Below are positions 49,660-60,267 of a DNA stretch of 64,000 nt, piece after piece. Location of the stretch: positions 1 through 64,000 of the forward strand of contig NZ_QCZF01000002.1 of the NCBI RefSeq assembly GCF_003075095.1, written 5' to 3'. Positions within the stretch are counted from its first letter, which is position 1, and every line of letters starts with the position of its first letter. The notes beneath the pieces are model-generated. The model was not told where the DNA came from. It did not search any database and saw only the letters and a list, made by a program, of their open reading frames with translations. The position numbers and the translations under genes are program-made. This DNA is from Blastococcus litoris (lineage in GTDB: Bacteria; Actinomycetota; Actinomycetes; Mycobacteriales; Geodermatophilaceae).

Positions 49660-50949
49660 CTACTCGCAACCGACCCCGTCGCCGTCCCGGTCGAGGTGCG
49701 GGGCGTACCCCGGCTGCCCGGCCCGGATCGGAGCAGCGCCGGCGGCACGCACCGCGTCGCAGTTCTTGTAGGAGACGCCGACAGGGGGAGCAGGAGCCGG
49801 GGCCGGGGCGGGTGCGGGTACGGGTGCAGGCGCGGGAGCAGGTTTCGGCGCGGGAGCCGGCGCGGGCGCCGGGGTGGGCGTCGGCTGGACGGGCTCGGGC
49901 ACCTGGGCGACCACGCCACCGGGCAGCGGCTCGCCCGGGCAGGCGCTGAGCACCGTCGCGATCGCGTTCTTCTCCGCCTGCGTCATCCAGAGCCCGTAGC
50001 TCACCTTCACCGCGACCTGGCGCGCAACGTACGCGCACCTGTAACCACGGTTCGGGGGCAGCCACGAGGCCGCGTCGCCGTCGCCCTTCTGCATGTTGAG
50101 CGGACCGTCGACAGCCAGCAGGTTGAGCGGGTCGTTGGCGAACGCGGTCCGCTGTCCTGCGGTCAGGGCCTGTGCGCCCTTCTGCCAGGCGTCCGAGAGC
50201 GCGACGACGTGGTCGATCTGGACGTCGTCGCTGGTGCTCTGGCCGCGCTGGAAGGCAATGGCCCGGCCGGAGTACGGATCGGCGAGATTCCCGGTGAGGA
50301 CGACGCAGTTGCGCGTCCCGGGCTTGAACGTCTCGCCCTCCAGGTCGCGAGCGAGGACGTCGTTGCGGGTGTCGCAGCCGTTGCGGTCGGTGTCCACCCA
50401 GCCCGAGCCGAAGTTGTCCCGGTCGTAGCCGGTGCGCGGCGCCCGGCCCTTGACCTCCACGGCGGCGAGCGCGGCCAGCGCGGTAGTTCGTCCCGCGTTC
50501 TCGACGGCCGCCTGGGCGGCGGTGTCGGTCAGCAGCCCCGCGCCGGCCAGGGCGTCGACCTGTGCCGCCGACTCGGCCGTCTCGGCATCGGCGAGCGCAG
50601 CTTCCGCGGCTTCCAGATCCGCCTCGCTCGGGGTGGGGGTTGACGACGTCGTGGCGGGGGCCGGTGTGGACTCGCTCGCGGCGGGCGCGGTCGGGGTCTC
50701 CGGCATGAGCGCACCGCCGACGACCGCCGCCGCGAGCCCGGCGGCCGCGACCGCACCGGCGACGGTGCGACCAGCCAGGGCCCACTGCATCCGGCCGCGC
50801 AATGCGGCGCCGCCCACCACGAGCGCGATCAGCCCGGCCATCAGCAGGCCGCCGGCAGCGCCGTTGCTGCCGATGCCCCCCGCGATGAAGACCACCGCGA
50901 CGGCGGCGAGGATGCCGAGCCGCGTGTGCACCGACGGACCAGCAGCCAT
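49660..50949 (-). CDS. DUF1524 HNH-like nuclease with Excalibur domain, 429 aa
   Basis: Three hydrophobic segments occupy about residues 10-27, 31-48 and 60-81, then a Thr/Ala/Pro-rich linker. The DUF1524 (GmrSD-type HNH) nuclease domain follows at about 150-325. It has Q-I-D-H-V-V-A-L-S-D-A-W near residue 245 and N-D-P-L-N-L-L-A-V near 272, with the catalytic His and Asn. A Pro-Ala repeat (about 355-387) leads to the C-terminal Excalibur calcium-binding domain (Y-K-N-C-D-A-V-R-A-A-G and D-R-D-G-D-G-V-G-C-E). It is probably anchored and facing outside, perhaps a nutrient or competitive nuclease. Confidence 0.88.
   Translation of the reverse strand: MAAGPSVHTRLGILAAVAVVFIAGGIGSNGAAGGLLMAGLIALVVGGAALRGRMQWALAGRTVAGAVAAAGLAAAVVGGALMPETPTAPAASESTPAPATTSSTPTPSEADLEAAEAALADAETAESAAQVDALAGAGLLTDTAAQAAVENAGRTTALAALAAVEVKGRAPRTGYDRDNFGSGWVDTDRNGCDTRNDVLARDLEGETFKPGTRNCVVLTGNLADPYSGRAIAFQRGQSTSDDVQIDHVVALSDAWQKGAQALTAGQRTAFANDPLNLLAVDGPLNMQKGDGDAASWLPPNRGYRCAYVARQVAVKVSYGLWMTQAEKNAIATVLSACPGEPLPGGVVAQVPEPVQPTPTPAPAPAPAPKPAPAPAPVPAPAPAPAPAPPVGVSYKNCDAVRAAGAAPIRAGQPGYAPHLDRDGDGVGCE
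49787..49884 (-). repeat. Pro-Ala coding repeat inside the DUF1524 gene
   Basis: Degenerate GC-rich hexamer-type repeats encode alternating Pro and Ala with occasional Lys or Val (A-P-A-P-A-P-A-P-K-P-A-P). They form a flexible spacer before the Excalibur domain. Slippage here could change the linker length. Confidence 0.7.
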
Positions 50950-55009: not shown

Positions 55010-55438
55010 TCAGGTCGGCAGCAGTCGCAGTCGCGGGGAGGTGACCAGCTGCTTCTCCAGGTGGACGCCGTGCCGGCCGTCCTCGGTGTGCGCGAAGTCG
55101 AGCCGGTCCACCAGCGCCTGCATGAGCACCAGCCCGCGGCCGCCGTCCAGCGGGGAGTTCGGCCGCGCCGCGGCGGCCGCCGCCACGTCGAAACCGTCAC
55201 CGTCGTCGAGCACGGTGATCCGGCAGACGTGGTCGTCGATCGTCACGTCGACCTGGTACTCCTCGTGCTCCCCGGCGTGCTGGACGACGTTGGCGCACGC
55301 CTCCGACAGCGCGAGGAGCACCTCGTCGATCCCGGAGGCGACCACCCCGAGGTACTGGAGCGCTTGCCGGAGCAGTCCGCGCACCAGCGGGACGCTCTGC
55401 GCGTCCACCGGAAGACGGACGCTGAAAGCGACGTTCAC
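55010..55438 (-). CDS. RsbW-like anti-sigma factor / serine kinase (GHKL ATPase), 142 aa
   Basis: The single GHKL domain has the N-box A-L-S-E-A-C-A-N-V-V-Q-H-A near residue 44, D-D-G-D-G-F-D near 80, and the lid G-G-R-G-L-V-L-M near 101. In partner switching such kinases hold a sigma factor or phosphorylate a STAS antagonist. The GTG at 55438 is fixed by a perfect GGAGGTGA ribosome-binding site. The gene is divergent from the STAS and phytochrome-phosphatase genes, with only 73 nt between, and no sigma factor gene is nearby. Confidence 0.9.
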   Translation of the reverse strand: MNVAFSVRLPVDAQSVPLVRGLLRQALQYLGVVASGIDEVLLALSEACANVVQHAGEHEEYQVDVTIDDHVCRITVLDDGDGFDVAAAAAARPNSPLDGGRGLVLMQALVDRLDFAHTEDGRHGVHLEKQLVTSPRLRLLPT

Positions 55439-55511
55439 CGGCAGCTCACCTCCTCGAGATCGTTGCCCGTACCCTCGTGCCAGCAGTGTGCCGCCGACGA
55501 GGGAGCTGTCC

Positions 55512-55871
55512 GTGCTGTTCGACGTGGAGCGGACGACCCTCGCGGGGCGTCCGGCGCTCACGGTACGGGGTGAGCTCGACCTGTCGACGGCCCCCGAGCT
55601 CGGCGCCGCCGTCGACGCGCAGCTCGCGGGCGCGCCGTCCTCGCTCGTCGTCGACCTGACCGACACCTACTTCCTGGACTCCTCGGGCGCCCGGCAGCTG
55701 GTCCGCATCTCCCGCGCGGCCGCCGCGCAGGGGGTCGCGCTGCACGTCGTGGTGCCGCACGAGAACGGGCCGGTGCGGCTGACCATCGACCTGCTGGAGC
55801 TGGGAGCGGTCGTCCCGCTCGTCGAGTCGGTGGCGCAGATCGGGTTCGGCGAGCGGGACGCCCGCACGTGA
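55512..55871 (+). CDS. STAS-domain anti-anti-sigma factor, 119 aa
   Basis: The STAS fold is seen as L-T-V-R-G-E-L-D-L-S-T-A-P-E-L, followed by S-S-L-V-V-D-L-T-D-T-Y-F-L-D-S-S-G-A-R. The phosphorylatable Ser of the D-S-S-G motif lies near residue 58. It should be the phosphorylation target of the RsbW-like kinase and substrate of the phytochrome-SpoIIE phosphatase that begins 10 nt downstream. GTG 55512 has GAGGGAG 6 nt upstream. Confidence 0.92.
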   Translation: MLFDVERTTLAGRPALTVRGELDLSTAPELGAAVDAQLAGAPSSLVVDLTDTYFLDSSGARQLVRISRAAAAQGVALHVVVPHENGPVRLTIDLLELGAVVPLVESVAQIGFGERDART

Positions 55872-55881
55872 CGTCGCCGCG

Positions 55882-58077
55882 GTGACCTCCGCCGAACCTC
55901 TCGCCGTCAGCGAGGAGGCGCTGCTGCGCTGCGCCGACGAGCCGATCGCTATCCCCGGTGCGATCCAGCCGCACGGCGTCCTCCTGGCGGTCACCGAGCC
56001 GGACCTCGCGGTCGTCGTCGCGTCCGGGAACGCCGCCCGGCTGTTCGGCCGGCCGGTGGCGGGCGCCTCCCTCGACGAGCTGCTGGGGGCCGACGACACC
56101 GCCCGCCTGCGGGCCGCCCTCGCCGGCGACCTCGCGGAGGCCAACCCGCTGCGCGTGCTGGACGGCGTCGACCTCGTGCTGCACCGCGCCGACGGCCTGC
56201 TGGTCACCGAGTGGGAGCCGGTCGCCGGGGCGGGGGACGCCGGCGCCGAGTGGCACCGCCGGCTGCCCACCGTGCTCCAGCGGCTGTCGGCGACGACGAC
56301 CCTCGACGAGCTCACCGACGTGCTCGCCCGCGACGTCCGCGCGCTCACCGGCTTCGACCGCGTCATGGTCTACCGGTTCGACGCCGACTGGAACGGCGAG
56401 GTGATCGCCGAGGCCCGCCGCGACGACCTCGAGCCCTTCCTCGGCCTCTGGTACCCGGCCAGCGACATCCCGGCGCAGGCCCGCGCGCTCTACGCGACCA
56501 ACTGGATGCGGCTCATCCCGGACGCCGGCTACCAGCGGGTCCCGCTCGATCCACCGACGGTCGGCGGCCGCCCGCTCGACCTCTCCGGCGCCATGCTGCG
56601 CAGCGTCTCGCCGGTGCACCTGGAGTACCTGGCCAACATGGGCGTCGTCTCCTCGATGTCGGTCTCGCTGATCGACGACGGCCGGCTCTGGGGCCTGATC
56701 GCCTGCCACCACTACGCCGGCCCGCACCGCCCGTCCTACGCCGACCGCGTGGCCGCCGAGTTCCTCGGCCGCACCGCCTCGCTGCTGCTGCCCACGAAGG
56801 TCGCGGCGGGGGAGCAGTCCGGCGTCGTCGAGGTGGCGCACCGGCAGGCCCAGCTGGCGGCGGTCGTCGGCCGGACGCCGCGGGAACTCGCGGCAGCACT
56901 GTCCGACGGCGACGTGACGGCGCTGGACCTCGTGCCGGCCGCCGGCGCCGCCGTCCGCATCGACGGCCAGCTGCGGCTGCTCGGGACGACGCCGCCGGCC
57001 GAGCGGGTCGAGCCGCTGGTGCGCGAACTGCTCGCGGCGGGGGTGTCGGTGACCGACGCGGTCAGCCGCGTGCTGCCGCACGCCGCCGACCTCGCGGACA
57101 CCGCCAGCGGCGTGCTCGCCGTCGAGGTTCCCGGCGGGCGCGACGACTACCTCGCCTGGTTCCGGCCCGAGACGATCCGCGAGGTCACCTGGGGGGGCAA
57201 CCCGTACACCTCGAAGACGGCGCAGACCGACGCCGGACCCCGGCTGAGCCCGCGCCGGTCGTTCGACGCCTGGAGCGAGACGGTGCGCGAGACCGCGCAG
57301 CCGTGGCGGCCGCACGAGGTGGCGGCCGCCCGCACGCTCGCCGCCGACCTCACCGATGCCGCGCTCAGCCGGGCGGCCGAGGACAACCGGCTGGTCACCG
57401 CCCTGCAGCGCACCCTGCTCCTCGACGAGCTGCCGAAGGTCGCCGGGTTCGACCTGGCGGCCCGCTACCTGCCCAGCGCGCAGGACGTCGTCGGCGGCGA
57501 CTGGTACGACCTCGTGCCGCTGCCCGGGGGCCGGATCTCGATCGTGCTCGGCGACGTCGCCGGCCACGGGCTGGCCGCGGCCGCGATCACCGCGCAGCTC
57601 CGGCACGCCCTCCGGGCCCACCTGCTGCGGGCGTCCGGGCCGGGCGTGGCGCTGGACGGCCTCAACCAGGTGATCGCCGCGCTCCTGCCGGGGGAGATGG
57701 CGACGGCCGTCGTCGTCGAGCTGGACCCGGCGACCGGCGAGGTGGTCGTCGCCAACGCCGGGCACCTGCCGGTGCTGCACGCCACCGCCGGCGGCGCCGA
57801 CTACCTGACCGCGGCCCGCGGGCCGGCGCTCGGGCTGCTCGACGCCGCGGGGTACCGGGAGACGCGGCTGCGGCTGGCGGCCGACGACCGGCTGCTGCTG
57901 TTCAGCGACGGCCTGGTGGAGCGCGGCCGGGAGGGCATGGCCGCCGGGCTGGAGCACCTCCGCTCGGCCGCCGCGGCGGCGCCGGCCGATCCGCAGGAGC
58001 TGCTCGACGCGGTGCTGACGGCGCTCGACCCGCCGGCCACCGACGACGTCACCCTGCTCGGCATCGCGCGAACCTGA
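55882..58077 (+). CDS. bacteriophytochrome with SpoIIE/PP2C phosphatase output, 731 aa
   Basis: The photosensory part is PAS2-GAF-PHY. Biliverdin-attachment Cys is near residue 17 in L-L-R-C-A-D-E-P, followed by I-P-G-A-I-Q-P-H-G. The GAF pocket has Y-P-A-S-D-I-P near 192, with the conserved Asp, and A-C-H-H-Y near 274. The PHY tongue has T-W-G-G-N-P near 436 and S-P-R-R-S-F near 456. The output is a PP2C-type phosphatase (about 510-731) with G-G-D-W-Y-D near 537 and D-V-A-G-H-G near 557. There is no histidine kinase, so red or far-red light should control dephosphorylation of a STAS protein. GTG start, 10 nt after the STAS gene. Confidence 0.93.
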   Translation: MTSAEPLAVSEEALLRCADEPIAIPGAIQPHGVLLAVTEPDLAVVVASGNAARLFGRPVAGASLDELLGADDTARLRAALAGDLAEANPLRVLDGVDLVLHRADGLLVTEWEPVAGAGDAGAEWHRRLPTVLQRLSATTTLDELTDVLARDVRALTGFDRVMVYRFDADWNGEVIAEARRDDLEPFLGLWYPASDIPAQARALYATNWMRLIPDAGYQRVPLDPPTVGGRPLDLSGAMLRSVSPVHLEYLANMGVVSSMSVSLIDDGRLWGLIACHHYAGPHRPSYADRVAAEFLGRTASLLLPTKVAAGEQSGVVEVAHRQAQLAAVVGRTPRELAAALSDGDVTALDLVPAAGAAVRIDGQLRLLGTTPPAERVEPLVRELLAAGVSVTDAVSRVLPHAADLADTASGVLAVEVPGGRDDYLAWFRPETIREVTWGGNPYTSKTAQTDAGPRLSPRRSFDAWSETVRETAQPWRPHEVAAARTLAADLTDAALSRAAEDNRLVTALQRTLLLDELPKVAGFDLAARYLPSAQDVVGGDWYDLVPLPGGRISIVLGDVAGHGLAAAAITAQLRHALRAHLLRASGPGVALDGLNQVIAALLPGEMATAVVVELDPATGEVVVANAGHLPVLHATAGGADYLTAARGPALGLLDAAGYRETRLRLAADDRLLLFSDGLVERGREGMAAGLEHLRSAAAAAPADPQELLDAVLTALDPPATDDVTLLGIART

Positions 58078-59300: not shown

Positions 59301-60119
59301 TCAGGCGCCGGTTCCGTCGCCACTCTCCTCATCGCCGCCTCCCCGTAGGCGCCACCGGCGCACGCTGACGGACGCTGGGGTGCGCCCCAGCCGGATCGCC
59401 GCTGCTTCCACCGTGCCGTTGACGACGTCGGCGTCTTCGGCGGCGGTCCACCGTCGAGCACCGGCGACGGGACGCGCTCGCATGTCTGCTGGTCTCGTCC
59501 ATGCGGCCACTCGCTTCGCGGCTGCGTGCTTCCTCTCGAGCGCGAGGCAGCCGTCCGGGTACAGCCATTCGGCGAAGGCCGCGGCAGGGTCTCCGGCGAC
59601 CATCGGGTTGAACACACCGTCGCGGGAGTTCCTGGCCGGGTTGCGTCGTGCCCCGCTGACAGCCGAGACCTGGGCGCAGAAGAAGCGCGCCAGGGCCTCG
59701 CTGGCGGTCACGAAGCTCACGAACGGTAGGCCGGTCCCTGTGAAGCCGACGCTGCCATCTCCGTCGACCAGGCCACGGGCGTAGTCCCGGACGCTGAAGG
59801 CAGTGATCGGGGGAGCCGCTGTCACGGCCTTGCGCCCCGGCGGCAGTCCGAGCTCGGTGAGCTCCCGACGGAACGCCAGGTCGCAGAGGGTCCACGTCGC
59901 GGATCGGTGGGCGCCGAAATTGGTGGTCCGCTGGCGGTAGGACACCCTCGAGTGGACGTCGAACAACGTGGTGAAGGTATGCAGCAACGCGTCGTCGCAC
60001 TCGGAGAGCTCGATGGTGAGGCGACCCCGCTGCCGGGTGCCTGCGTAGTGGCTGCCGTCGGTCTGGGCGAAGCCGAAGAAGTAGGCATGAGCTGGCTGGG
60101 TGAGGTCGAGATGCGGCAC
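59301..60119 (-). CDS. free-standing LAGLIDADG-type homing endonuclease-like protein, 272 aa
   Basis: Two LAGLIDADG-like helices are visible: Y-F-F-G-F-A-Q-T-D-G-S-H near residue 13 and Y-A-R-G-L-V-D-G-D-G-S-V-G near 115, each with the acidic catalytic residue. Each is followed by strands typical of the fold (R-L-T-I-E-L-S-E and S-F-V-T-A-S-E). The last 50 residues contain a SANT/Myb-like helix-turn-helix (R-R-W-T-A-A-E-D-A-D-V, then L-G-R-T-P-A-S-V-S-V-R). Start GTG 60119 is tentative, as no ribosome-binding site is clear. No intron or intein surrounds it. Confidence 0.78.
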   Translation of the reverse strand: MPHLDLTQPAHAYFFGFAQTDGSHYAGTRQRGRLTIELSECDDALLHTFTTLFDVHSRVSYRQRTTNFGAHRSATWTLCDLAFRRELTELGLPPGRKAVTAAPPITAFSVRDYARGLVDGDGSVGFTGTGLPFVSFVTASEALARFFCAQVSAVSGARRNPARNSRDGVFNPMVAGDPAAAFAEWLYPDGCLALERKHAAAKRVAAWTRPADMRARPVAGARRWTAAEDADVVNGTVEAAAIRLGRTPASVSVRRWRLRGGGDEESGDGTGA

Positions 60120-60199
60120 GGGGGCAGCATCTCGCCGACATCTGACAGAGAGCCCCGGCCCCCGCAGCCCCTGCGCGCTCGGGGAGCGACGCCGATCGT

Positions 60200-60267
60200 C
60201 GAGAAGGCAGTTGCGGTCGCCGACACGCGCGGACACGCCGTGCGGGGCGACCACGACTGCCTTCTCG
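60200..60267. repeat. 22-bp inverted repeat with 24-nt loop
   Basis: The arms at 60200-60221 and 60246-60267 are complementary at 20 of 22 positions. The structure lies between the stop of the large helicase gene (60283) and the start of the endonuclease gene (60119). It could be a terminator, an attenuator or a DNA recognition site. No U-tract follows on the minus strand. Confidence 0.7.

What the first reader, a model, noticed from the sequence alone, without database searches (positions are those of the whole stretch)
55010..58077. Complete red-light partner-switching module: RsbW kinase, STAS protein, phytochrome-SpoIIE phosphatase
The phytochrome keeps the chromophore Cys and pocket motifs but has a PP2C output in place of a kinase. 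Its natural substrate, a D-S-S-G STAS protein, is encoded 10 nt upstream, and the antagonist kinase diverges 73 nt away. The three genes should convert light into release of a sigma factor or other RsbW client. No sigma gene lies nearby, so the client is unknown.
Basis: partly seen in the sequence, partly recalled or inferred. Interest (0 to 1): 0.8.

Follow-up and report, generated by a model that had tools for sequence, protein, structure and literature searches.

The report
Red-light phosphatase cassette in Blastococcus
A soil and stone bacterium carries three neighbouring genes that probably let a red-light sensor switch a stress-control protein on or off; each part is of a known type, and I found no paper describing this combination in the open papers I searched.

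Summary
The window (nearest named relatives: Blastococcus) holds an RsbW-type kinase (55010-55438, minus), a D-S-S-G STAS protein (55512-55871) and a PAS2-GAF-PHY-SpoIIE bacteriophytochrome (55882-58077), 73 and 10 nt apart.

It is a conserved unit: STAS lies beside the phytochrome in 35 of 35 Geodermatophilaceae loci, RsbW in 34. Among 76 family genomes the RsbW ortholog occurs only with this phytochrome (34 of 36, against 0 of 40). A heme oxygenase gene, next to a second phytochrome elsewhere, is in 36 of 36 such genomes; in nine, that second phytochrome is gone or decayed but the oxygenase stays. This argues for a working biliverdin photosensor.

No SigF-type gene is linked. The genome's SigF-linked anti-sigma lacks the catalytic Asn (29 of 29 homologs), while the cassette kinase keeps it. 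Best fit: an input cassette like M. smegmatis RsfB/RsbW2/RsfR, in which light sets STAS phosphorylation and STAS acts on the SigF anti-sigma. Bilin binding, enzyme activity, light direction and the SigF link are untested. New variant of a known kind.

The parts
55010..55438 (-). RsbW/SpoIIAB-type GHKL serine kinase (142 aa) with intact N box (EACANVVQHA), G1 (DDGDG) and G2 (GGRGL)
   Evidence: PF13581 78.7 bits; RsbW 6m36 and SpoIIAB 1l0o/1til in PDB; box residues conserved in 35 orthologs including the window
55470..55475 (+). TACCCT, conserved TANNNT hexamer about 40 nt before the STAS start; likely -10 element of the STAS-phytochrome operon (housekeeping type by recall)
   Evidence: TANNNT in 35 of 36 intergenic regions at 36-45 nt from the STAS start; shuffles give mean 3.4, maximum 11 of 36
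55512..55871 (+). STAS anti-sigma-antagonist-type protein (119 aa) with D-S-S-G; the first Ser is the likely phosphoacceptor (by recall of SpoIIAA)
   Evidence: PF01740 46.8 bits; D-S-x-G invariant in 36 orthologs; RsfB 8ih8 among PDB hits
55882..58077 (+). Bacteriophytochrome phosphatase (731 aa): PAS2 17-114, GAF 141-299, PHY 333-497, SpoIIE/PP2C 548-729
   Evidence: Pfam; PDB alignment of the sensor and of the PP2C domain, best hit Rv1364c 3ke6 at 88 bits
55930..55932 (+). Codon of Cys17, the expected biliverdin attachment site
   Evidence: aligned to the conserved Cys of solved BphPs; at least 90% conserved in 39 homologs
57250..57495 (+). PRRSF (tongue) to the residue before GGDWYD: coupling segment of fixed length (81 residues from P457 to G538)
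   Evidence: spacing 81 in 81 of 82 homologs; the 82nd (L053) could not be scored

Best explanation
The three genes form a red/far-red input cassette for partner switching. The phytochrome binds biliverdin made by a BphO heme oxygenase encoded elsewhere and, in one of its light states, dephosphorylates the neighbouring STAS protein through its PP2C domain. The cassette RsbW re-phosphorylates STAS and is mainly a dedicated STAS kinase. Unphosphorylated STAS then displaces a sigma factor from an anti-sigma encoded elsewhere, most likely the kinase-dead RsbW1 that shares an operon-like locus with SigF, so that light tunes the general stress sigma factor. Shown by sequence: intact domains and motifs, gene linkage, co-occurrence, heme oxygenase retention, fixed coupling length, degenerate RsbW1. 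Inferred: bilin binding, light control, STAS as substrate, SigF as end target. Which light state is active is unknown.
For: Intact domains and motifs. STAS adjacent in 35 of 35 loci and RsbW in 34 of 35. RsbW ortholog in 34 of 36 genomes with this phytochrome and 0 of 40 without. BphO in 36 of 36, kept in 9 genomes whose second phytochrome is lost; remnants are seen in 3 of those 9. The SigF-linked RsbW1 lacks the catalytic Asn in 29 of 29 homologs and its D-x-G-x-G box is degenerate. RsbW1 is present in 16 of 16 genomes with the cassette in the 38-genome sample. The cassette STAS matches the STAS gene about 4 kb from sigF best of 11 other STAS stretches in the genome (41.6 bits). RsbW is absent in 2 of 36 while STAS and phytochrome stay. 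Precedent: RsfB/RsbW2/RsfR feeding SigF (PMC10950880, passages). Coupling by a fixed helix-like linker fits the PPM coiled-coil model (PMC12143880, passages).
Against: Nothing here shows binding, activity or light response. Several other kinases in the genome, including the SpoIIE-kinase-STAS fusion at the sigF locus, also keep the catalytic Asn, so the cassette kinase is not the only candidate. Run the other way, RsbW1's best match among the other kinases is the cassette kinase, though only at 14.7 bits. The sigF-locus STAS prefers two other STAS genes (77.8 and 60.0 bits) to the cassette STAS (41.3). No SigF-type promoter was recognised: the conserved element looks housekeeping. Outside the family, 33 of 45 loci showed no STAS or RsbW gene within about 3 kb with HMMs built from the family only.
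Confidence: 0.5

Rival explanations
1. One reading: the cassette RsbW is itself an anti-sigma or client-binding switch protein with a private client encoded elsewhere, released when STAS is dephosphorylated.
For: Classical RsbW and SpoIIAB are both kinase and anti-sigma; the cassette kinase matches RsbW 6m36 (37.5 bits) and SpoIIAB in PDB; RsbW1's best match among the genome's other kinases is the cassette kinase, weakly (14.7 bits).
Against: No SigF-type gene in the 35 loci. Where RsbW and STAS are separated by 3.7-8.1 kb the genes between look like P450s and a transporter, not a sigma factor (my reading). In M. smegmatis RsbW2 does not bind SigF (PMC10950880, passages). ECF-type sigma genes were not searched for in the loci.
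Confidence: 0.22
2. The STAS protein acts on something other than a sigma factor, or on several kinases of the genome's large partner-switching network, so light modulates a shared pool.
For: The genome has 20 places over the PF13581 cut-off (some are ordinary histidine kinases), 11 over the STAS cut-off and 16 matches to the phytochrome phosphatase protein. Two genomes keep STAS and phytochrome without the cassette RsbW.
Against: Strict genomic pairing of the cassette RsbW with this phytochrome (34 of 36 against 0 of 40).
Confidence: 0.15
3. The phytochrome is not a light sensor in life (apo form, redox or other ligand), although the phosphatase and STAS pair works.
For: No heme oxygenase in the cassette; the PF01126 genome search found none; photochemistry cannot be tested here.
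Against: A BphO over the PF01126 cut-off lies beside the second phytochrome and is in 36 of 36 genomes with this phytochrome, including 9 without an intact second one; Cys17 and chromophore-pocket motifs are kept.
Confidence: 0.1
4. Chance adjacency of unrelated regulators.
For: Partner-switching genes are numerous in this genome.
Against: Conserved in 34 of 35 loci with changing flanks and paired in 76 genomes.
Confidence: 0.02

Closest known systems
RsfB / RsbW2 / RsfR of Mycobacterium smegmatis (SigF input; PMC10950880, passages)
   Same: STAS protein, a kinase that phosphorylates it, and a PP2C phosphatase with its own sensor domain encoded next to each other, with a separate sigF-linked anti-sigma
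   Different: The sensor there is a receiver domain driven by a histidine kinase that reads respiration; here it is a bacteriophytochrome fused to the phosphatase, and the gene order differs
RsbU/RsbP-RsbV-RsbW partner switch of Bacillus (PMC12143880, passages)
   Same: PPM phosphatase, STAS antagonist, GHKL kinase; predicted helical coupling of sensor to PPM domain
   Different: There RsbW is the anti-sigma and sigB is in the operon (partly recalled); no phytochrome
Bacteriophytochromes with SpoIIE/PPM output (PMC9587094, figure legend)
   Same: Same domain architecture, already noted as an output class
   Different: The paper characterises cyclase outputs; the passages I saw name no STAS or RsbW partner
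LOV-stressosome control of SigB (Lmo0799/YtvA; PMC3019169, passages)
   Same: Light feeding a sigma factor through RsbU, RsbV and RsbW
   Different: Blue-light flavin receptor in a stressosome, with a separate phosphatase; the red-light route there is unknown
Rv1364c (PP2C-kinase-STAS fusion)
   Same: Closest solved PP2C domain, 88 bits; same three activities in one protein
   Different: PAS sensor and one polypeptide; this genome has its own such fusion at the sigF locus

Membership tests
Bacteriophytochrome | PAS2-GAF-PHY photosensory order | tested here: met
   Pfam PF08446, PF01590, PF00360 over cut-off, in order
Bacteriophytochrome | N-terminal Cys, DIP and PR.SF motifs, pocket His | tested here: met
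   Cys17 aligned to solved BphPs; D195 I196 P197, P457 R458 S460 F461, H246 and H276 invariant in 39 sequences; roles of the residues recalled
Bacteriophytochrome | Heme oxygenase in the genome | tested here: met
   PF01126 25.5 bits, cut-off 23; 36 of 36 genomes with this phytochrome. The PF01126 genome search itself missed it
Bacteriophytochrome | Biliverdin binding and red/far-red photoconversion | not testable with these tools
   needs purified protein
Bacteriophytochrome BphP (NCBIfam equivalog, kinase type) | Score over the NF041576 cut-off | tested here: not met
   308 against 1040 bits; expected, as the output is not a kinase
SpoIIE/RsbU-type PPM phosphatase domain | PF07228 with metal-site motifs | tested here: met
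   146.5 bits; D540, D558, D676, D721 invariant in 39 sequences
SpoIIE proper | TIGR02865 cut-off | tested here: not met
   18.2 against 490.8 bits
RsbW-type kinase fold | PF13581 with N, G1 and G2 boxes | tested here: met
RsbW (NCBIfam anti-sigma B equivalog) | PRK04069/TIGR01924 cut-off | tested here: not met
   48.3 against 145 and 40.6 against 155 bits
Anti-sigma antagonist (STAS) | STAS domain with phosphorylatable D-S-x-G | tested here: met
   TIGR00377 just below its cut-off, 47.5 against 53.45
Classical partner-switching operon | Cognate SigB/F/G-type sigma gene linked | tested here: not met
   no SigF hit in the 35 family loci with about 6 kb flanks where available; ECF types not searched
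RsfB/RsbW2/RsfR-like input cassette | Separate sigF-linked anti-sigma that appears unable to phosphorylate | tested here: met
   RsbW1 N-box Asn lost in 29 of 29, own included; that M. smegmatis RsbW1 is kinase-dead was not seen in the passages
RsfB/RsbW2/RsfR-like input cassette | Kinase does not bind sigma; STAS binds the anti-sigma | not testable with these tools
   needs binding assays

The most novel reading that the evidence does not exclude
A bacteriophytochrome gates the general stress sigma factor SigF in Geodermatophilaceae through a dedicated kinase-STAS-phosphatase cassette. The cassette is needed because the SigF-linked anti-sigma has lost its kinase activity, so red/far-red light sets stress readiness in sun-exposed soil and stone bacteria.
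Probability: 0.4. Interest if true: 0.75.

Novelty: new variant of a known kind. Interest (0 to 1): 0.52.

Why it matters
Bacteriophytochromes with phosphatase outputs are listed as a class, but the papers I saw give them no substrate. Here a substrate and a counter-acting kinase are encoded beside the sensor and kept together across a family, which gives a minimal three-protein system for in vitro reconstitution. If the SigF link holds, it would give a red-light route into a general stress sigma factor; the red-light route to SigB in Listeria was reported as unknown (PMC3019169, passages). The fixed coupling length also offers a natural test of how phytochromes drive PPM phosphatases.

Tried and rejected
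SigF promoter: the conserved element between RsbW and STAS could be read on the minus strand as GGGTA, but this holds in only 19 of 36 regions, and the GGGTA(C/T) form only in the window and L049, while a forward TANNNT holds in 35 of 36; rejected as a SigF signature.

Linked client: genes between RsbW and STAS in three genomes where they are apart were read; no sigma factor was recognised.

Mirror-tree test in 28 of 36 sequences (one without RsbW, three with broken frames and four without the control gene were dropped): RsbW and STAS distances correlate beyond phytochrome and a flanking gene (partial r 0.42, 0 of 2000 permutations). STAS correlates with sensor and PP2C alike (0.25 and 0.28, 11 of 2000 each), so the test is not specific, and it ignores relatedness.

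Heme oxygenase: the PF01126 genome search found none; reading the second phytochrome's neighbours found it.

No model was obtained, so the helical coupling rests on spacing and composition only.
Full report
What is there. Three intact genes fill 55010-58077: an RsbW-type kinase on the minus strand, then divergently a STAS gene and, 10 nt on, a bacteriophytochrome with a SpoIIE/PP2C output. The best solved relatives are BphP photosensory modules (374 bits), the PP2C domain of Rv1364c (88 bits), RsbW 6m36 (37.5 bits) and two anti-sigma antagonists, one of them RsfB. NCBIfam equivalog cut-offs for RsbW, SpoIIE and kinase-type BphP are not reached, and the general antagonist model TIGR00377 is just missed, so the proteins are of these kinds but not named members.

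Conservation. One scan of 84,980 species genomes gave 195 relatives, of which the best 80 were kept. I count 35 of the 80 as Geodermatophilaceae (L017-L049, L062, L065; L049 is labelled 'UNVERIFIED_ORG: Bacillus' but has the same neighbours). STAS is adjacent in 35 of 35 and the divergent RsbW in 34 of 35, missing in L021. The next genes out vary: the 179-aa ORF beside RsbW has a hit in 8 of 35, and the dehydratase-like gene is on the other side in 9. In 76 family genomes, the RsbW ortholog (E at most 1e-20) is in 34. The window-type phytochrome (69% identity or more, or over 500 bits; three genomes have broken or partial hits) is in 36. All 34 lie within the 36, and 0 of the other 40 have RsbW. 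By the coordinates, RsbW is within 0.8 kb of the phytochrome in 31 of 34 and 3.7 to 8.1 kb away in three of one genus. The p-value of 1e-19 treats related genomes as independent.

Outside the family, 12 of 45 loci have a STAS or RsbW gene within about 3 kb, in different arrangements: RsbW divergent without STAS (L050, L055, L060); STAS-BphO-phytochrome (L053); STAS on the opposite strand upstream (L071, L078, L079, L085); an RsbW-STAS pair facing the phytochrome's end (L076, L081, L091); STAS downstream (L090). The other 33 showed none, but the models were built from the family only and several contigs are short.

Chromophore supply. The second phytochrome phosphatase of the genome (45% identity) is preceded by a heme oxygenase (PF01126 25.5 bits, cut-off 23; HemO 1j77 in PDB). 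Over the 76 genomes this oxygenase is in 36 of 36 with the cassette phytochrome, 20 of 26 with only the second phytochrome, and in 1 of 14 with neither, there as a weak partial hit. Nine cassette genomes have no second phytochrome at E at most 1e-80 but keep an unbroken oxygenase gene; around it, remnants of the second phytochrome were found in 3 of 9 (L154, L157, L162) and none in 6. In the three loci whose ORFs I listed (L154, L157, L161) the flanking gene is the one beside the oxygenase in the window's genome. The oxygenase therefore outlives its neighbour, as expected if the cassette phytochrome needs biliverdin. A phytochrome of another output type below the 1e-80 threshold is not excluded.

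Coupling. From the PR.SF motif to GGDW the spacing is 81 residues in 81 of 82 homologs at 41-84% identity; the last could not be scored. Between them runs a stretch with few Pro or Gly and spaced hydrophobic positions. Passages of PMC9587094 tell that linker length is under strong selection in phytochrome cyclases, and of PMC12143880 that PPM phosphatases are switched through helical dimer linkers. A direct rotary or bending link fits, but no structure model was obtained.

Where the signal goes. The genome has one SigB/F/G-type sigma gene over the cut-off, G000:C2:361490-362161, with an RsbW-like gene just upstream, a SpoIIE-kinase-STAS fusion and another STAS gene nearby. The sigF-linked RsbW1 has Thr or Ile in place of the N-box Asn in 29 of 29 homologs (own included; 29 of 38 genomes searched had a match), no D-x-G-x-G box, and GFGW in place of GRGL. 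It is thus probably a sigma-binding but kinase-dead protein. The cassette kinase keeps these residues in 35 of 35 sequences. All 16 cassette genomes in that 38-genome sample have RsbW1. The cassette STAS is closer to the STAS gene about 4 kb from sigF (41.6 bits) than to the other ten STAS stretches, but that gene itself prefers two others (77.8 and 60.0 bits), and RsbW1's best kinase match is the cassette kinase (14.7 bits, weak). Other kinases, such as the fusion, also keep the Asn. Two genomes lack the cassette RsbW and keep STAS and phytochrome. Passages of PMC10950880 describe the same logic in M. smegmatis: RsbW2 phosphorylates RsfB without binding SigF, RsfR dephosphorylates it, and RsbW1 is the anti-SigF. 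I therefore prefer an input cassette acting on SigF in trans to a private client, at moderate odds.

Promoter. The 73-nt gap holds a forward TANNNT in 35 of 36 regions at 36-45 nt from the STAS start (shuffle mean 3.4, maximum 11). This suggests a housekeeping-type promoter for STAS-phytochrome and not SigF autoregulation.

Known or new. Ten full-text searches of an open-access library gave no paper that I could recognise from the listings as describing a phytochrome-PP2C with STAS and RsbW partners; subscription papers and preprints are not in it. PMC9587094 lists SpoIIE/PPM as a bacteriophytochrome output (figure legend). Passages of PMC4844311 and PMC10979010 mention SpoIIE and STAS in other light-receptor contexts. 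I file it as a new variant of a known kind.

Noticed in passing
L097:8023-10970 (G000:C4): Second bacteriophytochrome-SpoIIE of the genome with a heme oxygenase gene directly upstream; no STAS or RsbW hit in the 18-kb locus.
   Followed up: yes
G006, G017, G025, G032, G063, G067 (genus g7): Second-type phytochrome present without any heme oxygenase hit; the match to the query starts only at residue 103-132, so the Cys-bearing N-terminus may be missing or divergent.
   Followed up: no
L099:4456-4950 (-): SigF-linked anti-sigma with degenerate kinase boxes in all 29 homologs found.
   Followed up: yes
L119, L120, L121 (G001, G013, G021): RsbW and STAS pulled 3.7-8.1 kb apart by P450-like genes and, in L121, a transporter-like gene (my reading, no family search).
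   Followed up: partly
L053:5078-6011: A MAG locus with the order STAS, heme oxygenase, phytochrome.
   Followed up: partly
L076:8211-9306, also L081 and L091: Mycobacterium loci in which an RsbW-STAS pair faces the end of a phytochrome phosphatase gene.
   Followed up: partly
59301-60254 (-): Free-standing ORF with a weak LAGLIDADG_3 match just below cut-off (21.1 against 22.5 bits).
   Followed up: partly
49660-50949 (-): ORF with a GmrSD_C nuclease-like domain and a C-terminal Excalibur domain.
   Followed up: partly
G053, G058, L047, L049, L065: Window-type phytochrome genes that appear in more than one piece; frameshift or assembly error not resolved.
   Followed up: no
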